Shown one piece after another: positions 3,197 through 31,623 of a DNA stretch of 31,623 nucleotides. Each line of letters begins with the position of its first letter. Positions within the stretch are counted from its first letter, which is position 1. The translations under genes were made by a program, and so were the position numbers. The notes beneath the pieces were generated by a model, which searched no databases, was not told the DNA's origin, and was given only the letters and a program-made list of their open reading frames with translations. This DNA comes from Coemansia sp. RSA 487 (lineage: Eukaryota > Kickxellomycota > Kickxellomycetes > Kickxellales > Kickxellaceae): positions 1-31,623 of the forward strand of contig JANBRJ010000136.1 of NCBI GenBank assembly GCA_027577595.1, written 5' to 3'.

Positions 3197-3706
3197 ATGG
3201 ACCAAGTTCTGAGCAAGCGTAAAAAGATACAGGGCATTGTTTCCTCATTGTTTGGCAAGAAGAGCGAGAACAGTGGCTCCAGCAGCGACGAAAAAGCGCC
3301 TGCTGACAACACCAAGCGTGCCATCGATGCAGTCAAGAAGGTTGTCGAAAAGAAGGTTCCCCAGAAATATGGCGGTACTTCCACAACGACTACTACTTAT
3401 ACGTCAAGAACTAGGTACAATAACGACAATTCAAATGCTGCGGGCATGCTAGTCGTTGGAAACACGGATTATGGAGGATCCAATAGCGGCTCACACTGCG
3501 GCGGCCACGGTGGACATCATGGTGGCTCTGGCGGTGGAGGACACCATGGCGGTTTTGGTGGCGGAGGACACCATGGCGGTTTTGGTGGCGGAGGACACCA
3601 TGGCGGTTTTGGTGGTGGAGACAGTGGAGGTGGCGGAGGCGGTGGAGGCGGTGATGGCGGAGGCGGTGGTGGAGGCGGTGACGGCGGCGGCGGTGGTGGT
3701 TGCTAA
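3197..3706 (+). CDS. Gly/His-rich low-complexity protein with GGHHGGFGG repeats
   Basis: A 169-residue protein with two halves. Residues 1-58 are a lysine-rich, probably helical head (KRKKIQG, KRAIDAVKKVVEKK). After a Thr/Tyr/Asn linker (TTTTTYTSRTRYNN), residues from about 90 on are almost only Gly, His, Asp and Phe. The nine-residue unit GGHHGGFGG is repeated three times, coded by near-identical 27-bp units at about 3535-3620, preceded by one diverged copy. The tail is poly-Gly broken by Asp and ends in Cys. There is no signal peptide or membrane helix. His clusters could bind metal and the Gly/Phe part could phase-separate or form a structural matrix; both are inference. Frames on the other strand here are shadows of the repeat. 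ATG 3197 is the first in frame and has a TATA box upstream. Confidence 0.6.
   Translation: MDQVLSKRKKIQGIVSSLFGKKSENSGSSSDEKAPADNTKRAIDAVKKVVEKKVPQKYGGTSTTTTTYTSRTRYNNDNSNAAGMLVVGNTDYGGSNSGSHCGGHGGHHGGSGGGGHHGGFGGGGHHGGFGGGGHHGGFGGGDSGGGGGGGGGDGGGGGGGGDGGGGGGC
3530..3625 (+). repeat. 27-bp coding minisatellite
   Basis: Three nearly perfect copies of a 27-bp unit containing GGACACCATGGCGGTTTTGG, inside the Gly/His-rich gene. The copies differ at only a few bases, so the array is young or kept uniform, and its copy number probably varies between strains. Confidence 0.8.
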
Positions 3707-4999: not shown

Positions 5000-5482
5000 A
5001 TGCGACTTTCTATAAAGGTTATACTTTTGAATCCTCAAAACAGGCGACTGGATTTTGAAATGAGTGTCAGAAAAGACATTAGAATATCTTTTCTGCTGGC
5101 AAAATCGAAAGCACTAATGAACATAAGTGGCGAATATTACCTTCGCTTCATATTTGCAAACGGAAAATCTATCCCTCTAAACAAAAAAAAGCTGCTCAAT
5201 GAGTATACATTTTCTAAAAAGGTGTTTATTATGATAGTCAAAGCTACTCACACCAAGGCAGCTGTCCAGGCGCCCCAGAGCTCTTCTGGCTATATATCGA
5301 CAAAAATTCATCCCTTTACTTTGCCCCAAACACACTATAACTGTTTCCCTCTCCATAGGCCATACAAACGTGACATTCAAGGTACAGAACAATGTCTGCC
5401 AAAAGAAACATACGGTCGAGGCATTGTAGTCAACAGCAAAGCACCTCACCCTCTTAGTCGATCCACAACTATTATCCACTAA
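5000..5482 (+). CDS. Ubiquitin-like (beta-grasp) protein, paralogue 1
   Basis: A 160-residue protein. Residues 1-85 read as a ubiquitin fold: strand IKVILLNP, hairpin, strand RRLDFEMSV, helix (ISFLLAKSKALMNI), strand YYLRFIFANGKSIPL, a LLNEY turn comparable to ubiquitin's LSDY, and last strand KVFIMIVKA. Where ubiquitin would end in Gly-Gly, this chain continues into a basic, Pro/Ser/His-rich tail of about 75 residues without obvious fold. So it should not be conjugated like ubiquitin; a binding or scaffold role is inference. It shares the N-terminal pattern M-x-x-x-IKV...P-x-NRR-x-DFEM with the gene at 6935-7414 (MRLSIKV against MSQGIKV), which makes them diverged tandem paralogues. Codon use is AT-rich, unlike the housekeeping genes downstream. 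Confidence 0.6.
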   Translation: MRLSIKVILLNPQNRRLDFEMSVRKDIRISFLLAKSKALMNISGEYYLRFIFANGKSIPLNKKKLLNEYTFSKKVFIMIVKATHTKAAVQAPQSSSGYISTKIHPFTLPQTHYNCFPLHRPYKRDIQGTEQCLPKETYGRGIVVNSKAPHPLSRSTTIIH

Positions 5483-6910: not shown

Positions 6911-7414
6911 ATGCTTTTTGGTAACAAAAAAATAATGTCTCAAGGTATCAAGGTGTCTGTGCTTTATCCGTTCAATAGACGGATGGATTTTGAAATGACA
7001 ATTCGAAACAACACAAAAATGTCGTATCTAATTGGCAAAGTGATGGCTATTCTTGCGCTGGACGCAACACATTGCCTACTACATGTGCATGGGGACAAAT
7101 CAACAACCAAATTAATAAATCGTAATATCAAGATGAGCGAGTACACAAGCAGTGATTTGATGTACTTGGTAGTTGCAAAGCAAGAGGTTTCGTTTGTGGA
7201 GAAGGCCAAGGTCCAAACCAAAAAAGCAAAGACAAAGATTATGAACTATCGTATGAAAAGAAAGCTATTGCAAAGAGTCTTGTCCCCTACAGCCATTTAT
7301 CTGCCTGAGCATTCGACTATAAACGCAAGTGCTGATTTCAAATACCAAATTACTCCTGTAAGTGCCTATCGGCCGCGGCATCCTCTTGGAAATTGCATCA
7401 GCTTTATAAGATAG
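6911..7414 (+). CDS. Ubiquitin-like (beta-grasp) protein, paralogue 2
   Basis: 167 residues from the first ATG, 159 from the second ATG at 6935. The second start gives MSQGIKV, which aligns end to end with MRLSIKV of paralogue 1, so 6935 may be the ancestral start; the extra MLFGNKKI is unsupported by the paralogue. The fold reads: strand IKVSVLYP, strand RRMDFEMTI, helix SYLIGKVMAIL, strand CLLHVHGDKSTTKLI, MSEY turn, strand LMYLVVAK. A Lys-rich helix follows (KAKVQTKKAKTKIMNYRMKRK), then a Pro/Tyr/His tail. No Gly-Gly terminus exists. The basic segment could bind nucleic acid or acidic partners, or act in nuclear import; that is inference. AT-rich codons and the same orientation as paralogue 1. 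Confidence 0.6.
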   Translation: MLFGNKKIMSQGIKVSVLYPFNRRMDFEMTIRNNTKMSYLIGKVMAILALDATHCLLHVHGDKSTTKLINRNIKMSEYTSSDLMYLVVAKQEVSFVEKAKVQTKKAKTKIMNYRMKRKLLQRVLSPTAIYLPEHSTINASADFKYQITPVSAYRPRHPLGNCISFIR

Positions 7415-22692: not shown

Positions 22693-22992
22693 CTAGCTCT
22701 TTTGTACGATTTTAAAAGCTACGTTTTGGTTGTATACAGTTGAGCCATTGCAGATTCCTTTACTTGCGATAGTAGCCTGCTCATTAGATGAATCCAAAGC
22801 TCTATCTCCAAACTTTATAGGTTTATTCAATTTATAGCATTCTATTTTCTTTCCTGAGCCCTTACACGATTCATTTGCCTCTTTTATACCTTTATTCATT
22901 TTCTTGAGATGCTTTTCAATCTCATCTCTCAAGTCTTCTACCGTGTCGTTCATTTTTATAGAAATAATTACTGGTTTAATTGCTATTGGCAT
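22693..22992 (-). CDS. Small ubiquitin-like (beta-grasp) protein (99 aa)
   Basis: An ATG-started gene of 99 residues. Pattern: strand AIKPVIISIKM, turn NDTVEDLRDEIEKHLKKM (the helix 1 region, cf. the TIENVKAKIQ helix of ubiquitin), a Lys/Gly-rich loop, strand KIECYKL, IKFGDRAL, then IASKGICNGSTVYNQNVAFKIV. The last part corresponds to ubiquitin's YNIQKESTLHLVLR, with the short ICNGSTV turn frequently seen in UBL domains. No Gly-Gly and no tail: it ends QKS. I judge this a ubiquitin-fold protein that cannot be conjugated in the usual way. It is not clearly closer to any of the other small proteins in the window. TATAAATA lies about 165 bp upstream on the minus strand. Confidence 0.6.
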   Translation of the reverse strand: MPIAIKPVIISIKMNDTVEDLRDEIEKHLKKMNKGIKEANESCKGSGKKIECYKLNKPIKFGDRALDSSNEQATIASKGICNGSTVYNQNVAFKIVQKS

Positions 22993-28365: not shown

Positions 28366-28470
28366 ATGACTACATTAACTATTTGCTATGATTTGTTTAA
28401 TAGCAAGAAAAAAGCTGTTTTTCATTATTCTCTAGATTTAGCAGGGTATAAAAGGAAAGCTTTGAAAGTG
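28366..28470 (+). pseudogene. Relic of the small beta-grasp-like array family
   Basis: From ATG 28366 the frame reads YDLFNSKKKAVFHYSLDL, which lines up with FNIFNGAKKVVSTSLDV of the gene at 29925, then loses similarity after AGYKRKAL. The core helix and C-terminal part are absent; the frame runs on as hydrophobic random sequence to 28659. The TATA box of the next gene (28447) lies inside it, and no TATA box stands about 150 bp before it. I judge it an N-terminal stub of a fourth copy. Confidence 0.45.
28447..28453 (+). promoter_or_regulatory. TATA box of array gene 1
   Basis: TATAAAA lies 158 bp before the ATG at 28605. Confidence 0.6.
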
Positions 28471-28604
28471 GAATTCATAGGCCTTCCTTTCTTAATCATT
28501 ACTTCTCTCTTACATTTGAACATTATATATTATTCATACATATTTAACATTACTACGGATAATCTGATTTCAATAAGTAAAGGATATTCGAATCACAAAC
28601 ACAA

Positions 28605-28886
28605 ATGCCAAGCTACAGCTGCAACATTTATACAGGCTCCAAAATACAAGCATCAGTAACTGTGGATGTTAAAGATGATGAAAAGCCAAGAGATGTACTA
28701 GCCTCAGTAATTTCAAAAGCTAAAGAGGAGCATCCCAAAACGTTTCCAGAAAAGAAACCTGTTTTCACATTTGATTATAGCAAGACAAACACTTCCAGAA
28801 GCCATAACAAACCATTCGTGGAAATGTTTAAGGGAAAATCAGTTACTGTAAAATATAAACCTGGTGAACTTCCAAAGATAAAGTAG
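28605..28886 (+). CDS. Small beta-grasp-like protein, array member 1
   Basis: 93 residues, ATG start in an A-rich context (CACAAATGCC). Predicted order: strand YSCNIYTGS, strand SVTVDV, helix KPRDVLASVISKAKEEH, strand FTFDYSKT, SHNKPFVEMFKGKSVTVKYKPGE. The layout (beta hairpin, helix, strand, short turn, final strand) fits a ubiquitin-like fold, and the FVEMFKGKSVTVKY end recalls ubiquitin's DYNIQKESTLHLVL. Shared with member 2: KPR[DE]VL, DY, SHNK-x-F-x-E-x-F-x-G, VKY-x-PG. There is no signal peptide, no membrane helix and no terminal Gly-Gly (ends KIK). I do not recognise a named family; the fold is inferred from the pattern. Likely an intracellular protein. Lys-rich, AT-rich codons. Poly(A) candidate AATAAA at 28917. 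Confidence 0.65.
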   Translation: MPSYSCNIYTGSKIQASVTVDVKDDEKPRDVLASVISKAKEEHPKTFPEKKPVFTFDYSKTNTSRSHNKPFVEMFKGKSVTVKYKPGELPKIK

Positions 28887-29611
28887 AATTCCCCATTTGT
28901 TTATATCTTGGACATCAATAAATTACCTGTATTCAAAGTTTCATTTGAGTTAGATAAAGCAAGAAATGAACAGTGTGCGGAGTACTTTTGTCACGAAAGT
29001 TCAATAAAGTTTTTCTTTGTAAGTTTTGTCTATAGCGTTTGTTGTAAAGATTTCCCTTGTGATACGAAATCTAATTACCGGATGTATGTTTACCACTATT
29101 TAACAGCATGCCATGTCATCACAGATAGATAGACTTTTCTCCTCTGGGGGGTTCCTTCTTCAGTTTTTATAATATACTTTTATTCATATTAAATCCCTAG
29201 TGCGATGTTCTAGTATTTATTTTTGTACTTTTTGATATTCCACTTGTATAGCTTATGAAGTCATCCATGGTGATAGAAAAATATAAATGTATGATTTAAT
29301 TTGATACACTGGCTGTGGATACCTAGACATGCAAAATCTTTGAATTATTACTAAAAATACAGGCATTTGAGAAATATATTGATCTATATAAGTACTGCCA
29401 TGGTATTTAGATCAATTGTTTAAGTATGCATTTAATATTTCCAATACCCGCATCTTCTGTACAATACATATGATTTCATGAAGGCTAGTGGAAATGGTTG
29501 GATTCAGAAAGTAAAAAATAATTACCCAAATCTAAAAAAACAGCCACGCAAACAAAAGATCAAATTGTGATTAAATTGTCAAAATGTAGCAATATTATAA
29601 GCGGAACTGAG

Positions 29612-29651
29612 ATATATATATATATATATATATATTTATTTATTTATTTAA
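29612..29651. repeat. TA / TTTA microsatellite
   Basis: About 12 TA units followed by three or four TTTA units, immediately before the conserved GTGGAAATGGAAAT motif. Confidence 0.85.
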
Positions 29652-29652
29652 A

Positions 29653-29731
29653 GTGGAAATGGAAATGGATAACAAAATAGGCAAATTTATATTTAAATAG
29701 AAGCTTCAATATTGAATAGTTTAAAAAAAGG
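29653..29731 (+). promoter_or_regulatory. Conserved upstream element of array gene 2
   Basis: AAGTGGAAATGGAAAT followed by TTTAAATAGAA and TAAAAAAA in the same order as upstream of array gene 3 (from 30896). The element starts about 120 bp before the TATA box here and about 100 bp before it at gene 3. Confidence 0.45.
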
Positions 29732-29774
29732 CAACACAACCCTAAATACAAAATACTTTCAGACTGTGGCATGG

Positions 29775-29781
29775 TATAAAA
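29775..29781 (+). promoter_or_regulatory. TATA box of array gene 2
   Basis: TATAAAA lies 150 bp before the ATG at 29925. A GTGGAAATGGAAAT element sits about 120 bp further upstream. Confidence 0.6.
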
Positions 29782-29924
29782 CAGCAACTTGCCAAAAGAA
29801 ATGCAACCTTTTCTCTTTTCCACCATGCTTTCTCACGTACACCTCAATAGAGATACTCTTAACTTGTCAATAACCCTGTAGGACGCTAAATCAGCACGAT
29901 TAGACATTATTAAATACAAATAAA

Positions 29925-30209
29925 ATGGTGCGGTATAATTTCAATATCTTCAACGGCGCCAAAAAAGTTGTATCCACATCTCTGGATGTAGGCACCACTG
30001 ACAAGCCAAGAGAAGTACTGGAATCTTTGGCCAAGCAAGCCAAGAGGGATTATCCAGATAAATTTACAGAGGAAATTCCACCATTATCAATCGACTATAT
30101 CAGTGCAGGCGTTTCTAAAAGCCACAATAAGAAATTTTCAGAGCAGTTTAGCGGTATAAGCACTGTCAAAGTGAAATATTTCCCTGGATTAACATGGGGA
30201 TCCAAGTAA
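29925..30209 (+). CDS. Small beta-grasp-like protein, array member 2
   Basis: 94 residues with ATG in the context AAATAAAATGG. Pattern: strand YNFNIFNGAKKVVSTSLDV, helix KPREVLESLAKQAKRDYPDKF, strand LSIDYIS, KSHNKKFSEQFSG, strand TVKVKYFPG. It aligns over its whole length with member 1 (SHNK-x-F-x-E-x-F-x-G, VKY-x-PG) and more loosely with member 3 (RYNF, LSIDY). Pairwise identity with member 1 is moderate, so the duplication is old or selection is strong. No targeting signal or Gly-Gly tail. The same plus-strand orientation and a regular spacing of about 1.2-1.3 kb point to tandem duplication. Function unknown. Confidence 0.65.
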   Translation: MVRYNFNIFNGAKKVVSTSLDVGTTDKPREVLESLAKQAKRDYPDKFTEEIPPLSIDYISAGVSKSHNKKFSEQFSGISTVKVKYFPGLTWGSK

Positions 30210-30432
30210 ATGTGTAGTATCGAGTGATGCATAAATAGCTCCAACTAAAAAATAAACAAATTCCCAACATGCATACATCCATTGTCATTGGATGATTACT
30301 TTACAATGGCAAAGATGGGGTTGACAGCTTTCCTCGATTCATAAACAATAAATTCCATATAAACCAAAAAAAACGAATGTGTTCACCATGTGTAAAAAGC
30401 AAGTGGGTAATAATTGGGTGGTAATTCTAATT

Positions 30433-30460
30433 AAATAACTTGATGCAAATCAAGTTATTT
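30433..30460. repeat. Perfect 12-bp hairpin with GCAA tetraloop
   Basis: AAATAACTTGAT (30433-30444), loop GCAA (30445-30448), ATCAAGTTATTT (30449-30460). The GCAA loop is of the stable GNRA class. It lies 224 bases past the stop codon of array member 2. Role unknown. Confidence 0.7.
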
Positions 30461-30895
30461 TCTCAGGTATATATGTAGGAAATAGGAGTGGAATATCCAT
30501 GTACATTTTTCTGCGCAGAATAAAGCAAGCCCGTCAAAATTAATTACCATACACGAAGCCGGCAAAAATAGATTTGGTCTAAAATATAAACTACAAATTA
30601 GAGTAAAGCTTAAAGGTGAATAATTGGCGATATATGTCACGCTAGTGTGGTTGTCGTATGCAAGGAAAGCCCATGACAATGGGTTTGCACAGCCACTAAA
30701 AGTTAACAATGCAACAGTGCACTACATGTAACGGCTCCCTGTTACATATAAGGATAGTATTGCCTGTGGGTCATTGCCTTCTGAAGGAAGGCATAGCTTT
30801 TTTCTTTTATCTAGTTTGAAAAGCAAGCGATCTATAAATTACTCTGTGTTATTTTATCCTGAGTCCATGGTAAACCCGTTACAATATATTTGGAA

Positions 30896-30957
30896 AAGTG
30901 GAAATGGAAATCGTAACTTTAAATAGAAATCGTACATTCGAAAAACTAAAAAAAAAT
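30896..30957 (+). promoter_or_regulatory. Conserved upstream element of array gene 3
   Basis: AAGTGGAAATGGAAAT, then TTTAAATAGAA and CTAAAAAAAAA. Homologous to the block before array gene 2 with small deletions. Either a retained promoter duplication or a binding site under selection. Confidence 0.45.
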
Positions 30958-30997
30958 ACATGGAGAATAATGCAAAAGTCAGTCGCATTTGGATGAA

Positions 30998-31005
30998 TAT
31001 AAAAA
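30998..31005 (+). promoter_or_regulatory. TATA box of array gene 3
   Basis: TATAAAAA lies 145 bp before the ATG at 31143. Confidence 0.6.
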
Positions 31006-31142
31006 GCGGCTGCTAGGACCAATTCAACAACTTGATAATTCACTATGCGTTATATCATAAACCAAACTGTGAAGCATAATATTTACATCTTTGCCATTAA
31101 TGTTTTCAATCTACTTAACATAGCTCCAACTCGCAAATAAAA

Positions 31143-31412
31143 ATGCCAAGATACAATTTTATACTATCCAGTGGCTACAGCATTCATGGGTCGGTGTCTA
31201 TGAACGTAGAAGGCAATGTCAGCCCAGAAACTGTCTTGGCTTGTATAGCTTCTAAAATCAAAAAAAGTAGATATGAAAAGGCACATAGGGGCCTATCTTC
31301 CGAACTTTCGATAGATTATGAAAAAACAAAGGCAAGATATAGTTCTAAAAATTACTTTAACATAAAATTTAAGGGTTTGGACAATATTTATGTGAATTGT
31401 AAATCCAAATAA
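31143..31412 (+). CDS. Small beta-grasp-like protein, array member 3
   Basis: 89 residues, ATG in the context AAATAAAAATGCC. Pattern: RYNFILSSGYSIHGSVSMNV, helix SPETVLACIASKIKKSRYEKA, strand ELSIDYEKT, ARYSSKNYFNIKFKG, strand NIYVNCKSK. It shares PRYNF and LSIDY with member 2 and the overall layout with both, but has lost the SHNK motif and the terminal VKY-x-PG, so it is the most diverged copy. No signal peptide, membrane helix or Gly-Gly. Function unknown. The right window edge lies 211 bp past the stop, so more members could follow outside the window. Confidence 0.6.
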   Translation: MPRYNFILSSGYSIHGSVSMNVEGNVSPETVLACIASKIKKSRYEKAHRGLSSELSIDYEKTKARYSSKNYFNIKFKGLDNIYVNCKSK

Positions 31413-31623
31413 CGCCTCAACTAATACAAGGATGTTGTCAGCCCCTTTGTTTCATTTTGAAATATATCGAACATAGGGCATGTAAGGACACATCATCATT
31501 TGCTAAAAAAAAAAAAGGAAAAGAAAATAGAATGCTGTGGTTTGGGACTGTGACGAATCGAGCATGGACCTGGGATGGATAACAAGGAGTATTCAGATGA
31601 TGTTTTATCTTTTATTTCCTTTC
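31413..31623. other. Right-edge sequence
   Basis: Downstream of array member 3; an A-run at 31506-31516. No gene is seen. Confidence 0.4.

What the first reader, a model, noticed from the sequence alone, without database searches (positions are those of the whole stretch)
28366..31412. Tandem array of small, fast-diverging beta-grasp-like proteins
Three intact plus-strand genes (93, 94 and 89 aa) and one N-terminal relic sit at regular spacing in an AT-rich island. Members 1 and 2 share KPR[DE]VL, SHNK-x-F-x-E-x-F-x-G and VKY-x-PG; member 3 shares RYNF and LSIDY with member 2. The strand-strand-helix-strand-strand order resembles ubiquitin, but there is no Gly-Gly, signal peptide or known domain. 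I know no named family with these motifs. A lineage-specific, birth-and-death gene family is the simplest reading.
Basis: partly seen in the sequence, partly recalled or inferred. Interest (0 to 1): 0.72.

Follow-up and report, generated by a model that had tools for sequence, protein, structure and literature searches.

The report
Orphan ubiquitin-fold gene array
A cluster of three small, related genes in a fungus-type genome encodes proteins that are predicted to fold like ubiquitin but lack the tail that lets ubiquitin be attached to other proteins, and it lies in a stretch that holds remnants of mobile DNA.

Summary
Three plus-strand ORFs (93, 94, 89 aa) are homologous coding genes; the 'N-terminal relic' is not supported. 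AlphaFold2 on the three-sequence alignment gives a confident beta-grasp model of gene 2 (pLDDT 89.3), and 40 of the 50 listed Foldseek PDB hits come from entries titled ubiquitin or ubiquitin-like. There is no Gly-Gly, no Pfam match over its cut-off, and no further copy was found in the 17.8-Mb genome. Each gene has a TATA box about 150 bp upstream; two other small orphan families on this contig share that placement, and ten other genes of the contig lack it. One of these families, unrelated by sequence, also models as ubiquitin-fold. The array's spacers hold two dispersed repeats with 5-bp target-site duplications; one looks like a solo LTR. Of ten other repeat-bearing stretches, two hold further private small-gene arrays; in one of them coding sequence has diverged nine times more than upstream DNA. 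Best reading: private, stand-alone, non-conjugating ubiquitin-fold binding proteins, perhaps shaped by genetic conflict. Binding and conflict are inferred. Expression, relatives in other fungi and partners could not be tested.

The parts
28605..28886 (+). gene 1 (g1), 93 aa, stand-alone ubiquitin-fold protein without Gly-Gly
   Evidence: ORF and translation; homologous to g2 and g3; fold inferred from the g2 model by homology
29925..30209 (+). gene 2 (g2), 94 aa, the protein modelled
   Evidence: AlphaFold2 pLDDT 89.3, pTM 0.79; fold searches
31143..31412 (+). gene 3 (g3), 89 aa, most divergent member
   Evidence: shuffle z 9.4 and 8.0 to g1 and g2; not modelled
28447..28452 (+). TATA box of g1 (-158)
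29775..29780 (+). TATA box of g2 (-150)
30998..31003 (+). TATA box of g3 (-145)
29650..29666 (+). 17-bp upstream element of g2, identical to that of g3; two exact copies in the whole genome
   Evidence: upstream g2/g3 similarity reached by 0 of 300 shuffles
30895..30911 (+). 17-bp upstream element of g3
29058..29193 (+). R2: dispersed repeat between g1 and g2, with 5-bp target-site duplication TCCCT at 29053-29057 and 29194-29198
   Evidence: 24 other matches in the genome; boundaries by alignment with 6 copies; flanks
30635..30883 (+). R1: solo-LTR-like repeat (TG...CA) between g2 and g3, with 5-bp target-site duplication ATATA at 30630-30634 and 30884-30888
   Evidence: 56 other matches in the genome; sharp ends against 9 copies; flanks
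31549..31623 (.). R3: repeat at the contig end, where the assembly breaks
5000..5482 (+). context: family B member 1; N-terminal domain predicted ubiquitin-fold, in another AT-rich island of this contig
   Evidence: TATA at -161
6911..7414 (+). context: family B member 2; probable start at a second Met, 6935
   Evidence: TATA at -160/-158 from 6935, at -136/-134 from 6911
22693..22992 (-). context: family C, singleton 99-aa ORF with a weak, below-cut-off Pfam Ubiquitin_4 match, in the third AT-rich island
   Evidence: TATA at -169

Best explanation
g1-g3 are a tandemly duplicated family, so far private to this genome, of stand-alone ubiquitin-fold (beta-grasp) proteins that cannot be conjugated. 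Shown by computation: the three ORFs are homologous and coding; g2 is predicted with good confidence to be a beta-grasp domain of the ubiquitin kind; there is no Gly-Gly; each gene has a TATA box at -145 to -158; the array lies in an AT-rich island with two inserted short repeats. Inferred: each gene is transcribed separately and makes a small intracellular protein that works as a non-covalent binding module. Duplication keeps a set of residues that look structural (Y4, G11, V22, P28, V31, L32, Y58, F71, F75, V83, invariant in the three) and lets the rest diverge. By a register with ubiquitin made by eye, the Ile44 patch is replaced by polar residues, so the partner is probably not a classical ubiquitin receptor. 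The most likely driver is genetic conflict (with transposons, viruses or rival alleles), because the genes sit in repeat-bearing AT-rich islands and small genes of another such island diverge in their coding part far more than upstream; this last step is the weakest.
Against: For g2 no Foldseek match has E at or below 0.001 and TM-scores are about 0.4-0.6; the model shows no clear strand 4. Only g2 was modelled. For g1-g3 pN/pS is 0.51-0.70, purifying or saturated, with no sign of positive selection. The C58 genes are a different short family of unknown fold; if they start at the first Met the ratio is 1.93 with p 0.062, and their synonymous sites also differ more than the upstream DNA (6 of 37 against 9 of 263, p 0.005), so upstream conversion or constraint explains part of it. 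The other two young pairs give 0.85 and 1.17, neither significant. The upstream DNA of g1 is not alignable beyond chance with g2 or g3. The C30 member of family B has no TATAWA within 250 bp. Tandem small-gene arrays were found in 2 of 10 other repeat-bearing stretches. No expression, partner or relative in another species is known.
Confidence: 0.55

Rival explanations
1. g1-g3 are fast-diverged paralogues of an ordinary conserved ubiquitin-like protein (for instance a Get5- or Hub1-like Ubl) that still do a housekeeping or adaptor job; no conflict is involved.
For: The top Foldseek match is the Get5 UBL; non-conjugating stand-alone Ubls exist (recalled: Hub1, Elongin B); pN is below pS.
Against: No known Ubl was recovered by sequence: no Pfam match over cut-off, no PDB relative better than E 0.25, and none of the 22 PF00240 matches in the genome lies on this contig. 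GC3 is 0.32-0.42 against 0.62-0.72 for five other genes of the contig, and the island carries inserted repeats.
Confidence: 0.17
2. They are intracellular or unconventionally secreted effectors, similar in fold to the ubiquitin-like header of Crinkler proteins.
For: Repeat-bearing AT-rich islands with small orphan genes are typical of effector compartments (general knowledge); Crinkler N-termini were modelled as beta-grasp (PMC6131194, passages).
Against: No signal peptide by eye, no C-terminal domain, no LxLFLAK or HVLxxP motif by reading g1-g3; the lifestyle of the organism is unknown.
Confidence: 0.1
3. They are parts of killer or poison-antidote elements comparable in genomic behaviour to the wtf meiotic drivers of fission yeast, with the ubiquitin-fold protein as a specificity or antidote partner.
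For: Tandem small genes beside a solo-LTR-like repeat; in the C58 pair a conserved upstream region with a divergent coding region, as described for wtf genes (conserved_up, solo LTRs, tandem pairs; PMC11497594, passages).
Against: No overlapping poison and antidote products, no partner gene and no long hydrophobic stretch seen in g1-g3 (by eye); Wtf proteins are recalled as multi-pass membrane proteins. Solo LTRs also gather in islands for neutral reasons.
Confidence: 0.08
4. The ORFs are chance or dead reading frames in repeat debris.
For: AT-rich, repeat-bearing setting; no expression data.
Against: Three intact homologous frames with similarity highest in the coding frame, a third-position excess of changes, TATA boxes and a confident fold model.
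Confidence: 0.03

Closest known systems
Ubiquitin and ubiquitin-like modifiers (PF00240 and relatives)
   Same: Predicted beta-beta-alpha-beta(-beta) topology; 40 of 50 listed Foldseek rows are from entries titled so; weak in-register match over strand 2 and helix 1.
   Different: No Gly-Gly tail, no Pfam match over cut-off, longer helix and no clear strand 4, no Ile44-type patch by a register made by eye; not found by the PF00240 search.
Stand-alone non-conjugating Ubls such as Hub1/UBL5 and Elongin B (recalled)
   Same: Single ubiquitin-fold domain without Gly-Gly, working through non-covalent binding.
   Different: Those are recalled as conserved genes; these are a tandem family with no sequence relation shown.
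Crinkler (CRN) N-terminal ubiquitin-like header (PMC6131194, passages)
   Same: Modelled ubiquitin-like fold; present in some fungi.
   Different: CRNs carry an LxLFLAK-type motif, HVLxxP and a C-terminal region; g1-g3 have none of these by reading.
wtf killer meiotic drivers of Schizosaccharomyces (PMC11497594 and PMC9562144, passages)
   Same: Genomic behaviour only: orphan genes, some in tandem, beside solo LTRs; conserved upstream region with divergent coding sequence (seen here in the C58 pair).
   Different: Different proteins; no poison/antidote arrangement shown; no drive tested.

Membership tests
Ubiquitin fold (beta-grasp, ubiquitin-like) | Predicted three-dimensional topology and match to solved ubiquitin-like domains | tested here: met
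   for g2 only, g1 and g3 by homology
Ubiquitin fold (beta-grasp, ubiquitin-like) | Detectable sequence relation to ubiquitin-like families | tested here: inconclusive
   No Pfam match over cut-off; hhalign P 0.01 in the expected register but probability 4%
Conjugated ubiquitin-like modifier | C-terminal di-glycine | tested here: not met
   No GG anywhere in the three proteins
Crinkler effector | LxLFLAK-type motif and HVLxxP boundary followed by a C-terminal region | tested here: not met
   Motifs as given in PMC6131194 (passages); absent by reading the 89-94 aa sequences
wtf-like killer driver | Overlapping poison and antidote products and biased transmission | not testable with these tools
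   No RNA or cross data
wtf-like killer driver | Association with solo LTRs and a conserved upstream region | tested here: inconclusive
   Solo-LTR-like R1 present; conserved upstream region in the C58 pair but not across g1-g3

The most novel reading that the evidence does not exclude
The AT-rich, repeat-bearing islands of this fungus-type genome are nurseries for many sequence-unrelated families of non-conjugating ubiquitin-fold microproteins, with TATA-type promoters and fast-changing coding regions: a hidden, fold-level superfamily engaged in genetic conflict, of which g1-g3 is one array.
Probability: 0.2. Interest if true: 0.8.

Novelty: new variant of a known kind. Interest (0 to 1): 0.55.

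Why it matters
Orphan genes rarely come with any structural clue. Here two families unrelated by sequence, on one contig, are both predicted to be ubiquitin-fold proteins; they share TATA placement and an AT-rich setting, and the three-gene family lacks a conjugation tail. If this holds, sequence-based counts miss a pool of ubiquitin-like proteins in such fungi, and this contig gives a small, testable set for asking how fast-changing proteins keep one fold and what they bind.

Tried and rejected
The relic at 28366 was tested by shuffling and rejected. A profile search without filters over six frames of the window and five other stretches found no further member of the g1-g3 family (next best E 3.4). 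Viral and prokaryote collections gave no relative at E 1e-3. Pfam gave only matches below cut-off for g1 and g3 and none for g2 (best E 0.011). PHROGs gave nothing better than E 0.25 for g1-g3 and 0.1 for the other three proteins. The PDB sequence search gave nothing better than E 0.25, and for family C nothing at all. Rfam gave no match over the gathering score and ARAGORN no tRNA. A relation between families was sought by profile comparison in 36 pairs of nine groups, each with a reversed control; apart from g1-g3 against ubiquitin (P 0.01), the best pair was C17/C58 (P 0.019, control 0.049), while one reversed control also reached 0.019, so none stands out. Family B is not visibly related to ubiquitin by sequence, only by predicted fold. 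No sign of positive selection on g1-g3 themselves. No paper on this family was seen in the held library; searches: (listings only), so absence from print is shown for those terms only. The organism was not identified; one literature search (listing) was not decisive.

Choices made after seeing the data: the TATA test was made after the motif was noticed; the scan allows for position but not for the choice of motif. There B2 was given the second Met (6935); with the first Met (6911) 5 of 6 genes fall in a 25-nt window and 6 of 6 in a 36-nt window, where 1500 null sets reached at most 5. The ten control genes have names from recall and start codons taken from ORFs, some of which may be wrong. 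The C58 genes were started at the second Met. The ten repeat-bearing stretches were chosen because one search found repeats there, so they are no random sample.

Full report
Setting. The window is the whole of contig C136 (31,623 bp) of a 17.79-Mb, 184-contig genome. Other genes of the contig include a cytochrome c heme lyase and a glycolipid 2-alpha-mannosyltransferase (Pfam), which fits a fungus; the species is not known. The three genes lie in the last 3 kb, at 31-35% GC. In 41 one-kb bins from five stretches elsewhere the mean is 48%, and 2 are at or below 36%; both lie in the one stretch that was chosen because it holds a family B gene.

The observation. g1, g2 and g3 are intact ORFs of 93, 94 and 89 aa. 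They share 43, 32 and 31% identity and align far above 1000 shuffles (z 16.8, 9.4, 8.0). The similarity is strongest in the coding frame, and third codon positions differ most (g1/g2: 56 of 93, against 35 and 36 at positions one and two). The relic at 28366 does not pass.

How many. Protein searches of the genome with each member return only these three genes (with g2 as query at E 0.001 only g1 and g2). The tool scores the best candidates only and ignores introns. The contig stops in a repeat 211 bp after gene 3, so members may be missing from the assembly.

Promoters. TATAAA lies at -158, -150 and -145. With all six orphan genes of the contig (g1-g3, B1, B2, C), all six have TATAWA in one 25-nt window; in 3000 resampled sets the best was 5, once; none of 10 other genes of the contig has one there. 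With the other possible start of B2 it is 5 of 6 in 25 nt, or 6 of 6 in 36 nt. Outside the contig the pattern is not general: the C30 member of family B has none within 250 bp, two C17 genes have one at -177, and the C58 and C56/C145 genes have one at about -80. g2 and g3 share a 17-mer with two exact copies in the genome, and their upstream similarity is reached by 0 of 300 shuffles; g1's upstream DNA matches neither beyond chance.

Repeats. The island searched as DNA against the genome gave 89 matches: itself, 56 to R1 (between g2 and g3), 24 to R2 (between g1 and g2), 5 to the contig-end repeat R3 and 3 to an AT simple repeat (my count of the rows); 40 of 168 candidates were scored, so these are lower bounds. 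R1 has sharp ends TG...CA when aligned with nine copies and a 5-bp duplication ATATA here; R2 has TCCCT. R1 is best read as a solo LTR; on C176 a copy lies next to retroelement-like pol reading frames, recognised by eye. From their duplications, both elements were inserted into spacers that already existed (inference).

Other islands. Ten further stretches bearing R1 or R2 were read (L042-L047, L053-L056). In a comparison of their low-GC ORFs, two of the ten hold private tandem small genes: C17, with ORFs of 120, 120 and 140 aa and no other copy found, and C58, with a pair whose DNA has no third copy found. One dispersed pair joins C56 and C145, and some ORFs shared by C56, C30 and C58 look like repeat sequence. 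In the C58 pair the 263 bp before the ATG differ at 9 places, while 177 aligned coding sites differ at 55, with pN/pS 2.15 and Fisher p 0.029. Against a simple reading, a start at the first Met gives 1.93 and p 0.062, and synonymous sites too differ more than the upstream DNA (p 0.005), which points to upstream conversion or constraint as part of the cause. C17 a/b gives 0.85, the C56/C145 pair 1.17, neither significant, and g1-g3 0.51 to 0.70. So divergence beyond neutrality is hinted at for one family only, and not for the array in question. By eye the C17 proteins and a C176 ORF (no other copy found) have a similar strand-strand-helix order; they were not modelled.

Reading. The fold without Gly-Gly, the private tandem copies, the TATA boxes and the repeat-bearing niche are best joined as stand-alone ubiquitin-fold binding proteins, with constraint on the core and freedom elsewhere. 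A beta-grasp review states that conjugation and sulfur transfer require the free C-terminus of a standalone domain, and that versions used for protein or nucleic-acid interaction are under no major constraint to stay standalone (PMC1949818, passages); a standalone form without Gly-Gly is therefore allowed but not the usual case. Genetic conflict is the driver I consider most likely. The wtf genes of fission yeast show how orphan genes, solo LTRs and a conserved upstream region can go together (PMC11497594, passages; PMC9562144, passages), and a survey of fungal orphan candidate effectors describes families with kept structure that diversified at surface residues (PMC10462633, abstract and section list). 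These are analogies, not membership.

Noticed in passing
window 5000-5482 (+), 6911-7414 (+); C30:47957-48253 (-): A second orphan family with a predicted ubiquitin-fold N-terminal domain and a longer C-terminal tail, unrelated by sequence to g1-g3.
   Followed up: yes
window 22693-22992 (-): Singleton 99-aa ORF with a weak, below-cut-off Ubiquitin_4 match in the third AT-rich island.
   Followed up: partly
C17:41916-44659 (L045 2911-3330, 4133-4492, 5301-5660, minus): Three tandem small orphan genes at about 1.2-kb spacing among R1/R2 repeats; two are 83% identical.
   Followed up: partly
C58:106713-108379 (L043 5698-5943 and 6949-7176, minus): Tandem pair with nearly identical upstream DNA and highly divergent coding sequence (pN/pS 2.15, or 1.93 with the other start).
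   Followed up: partly
L042:2879-3112 (+) on C56 and L047:3000-3236 (-) on C145: Dispersed pair of small orphan ORFs, 66% identical, with upstream DNA that looks alike and a TATA box at -83 in both.
   Followed up: partly
C176:2956-3186 (-) (L055): Small orphan ORF of 77 aa with a strand-strand-helix look by eye; no other copy found in the genome.
   Followed up: partly
L055:4931-7913 (-), C176: Broken retroelement-like pol reading frames next to an R1 copy (by eye), suggesting that R1 is an LTR; not mended or joined.
   Followed up: no
window 3197-3706 (+): Glycine- and histidine-rich 169-aa ORF with repeated GGFGGGGHH-type units; no Pfam match over its cut-off.
   Followed up: no
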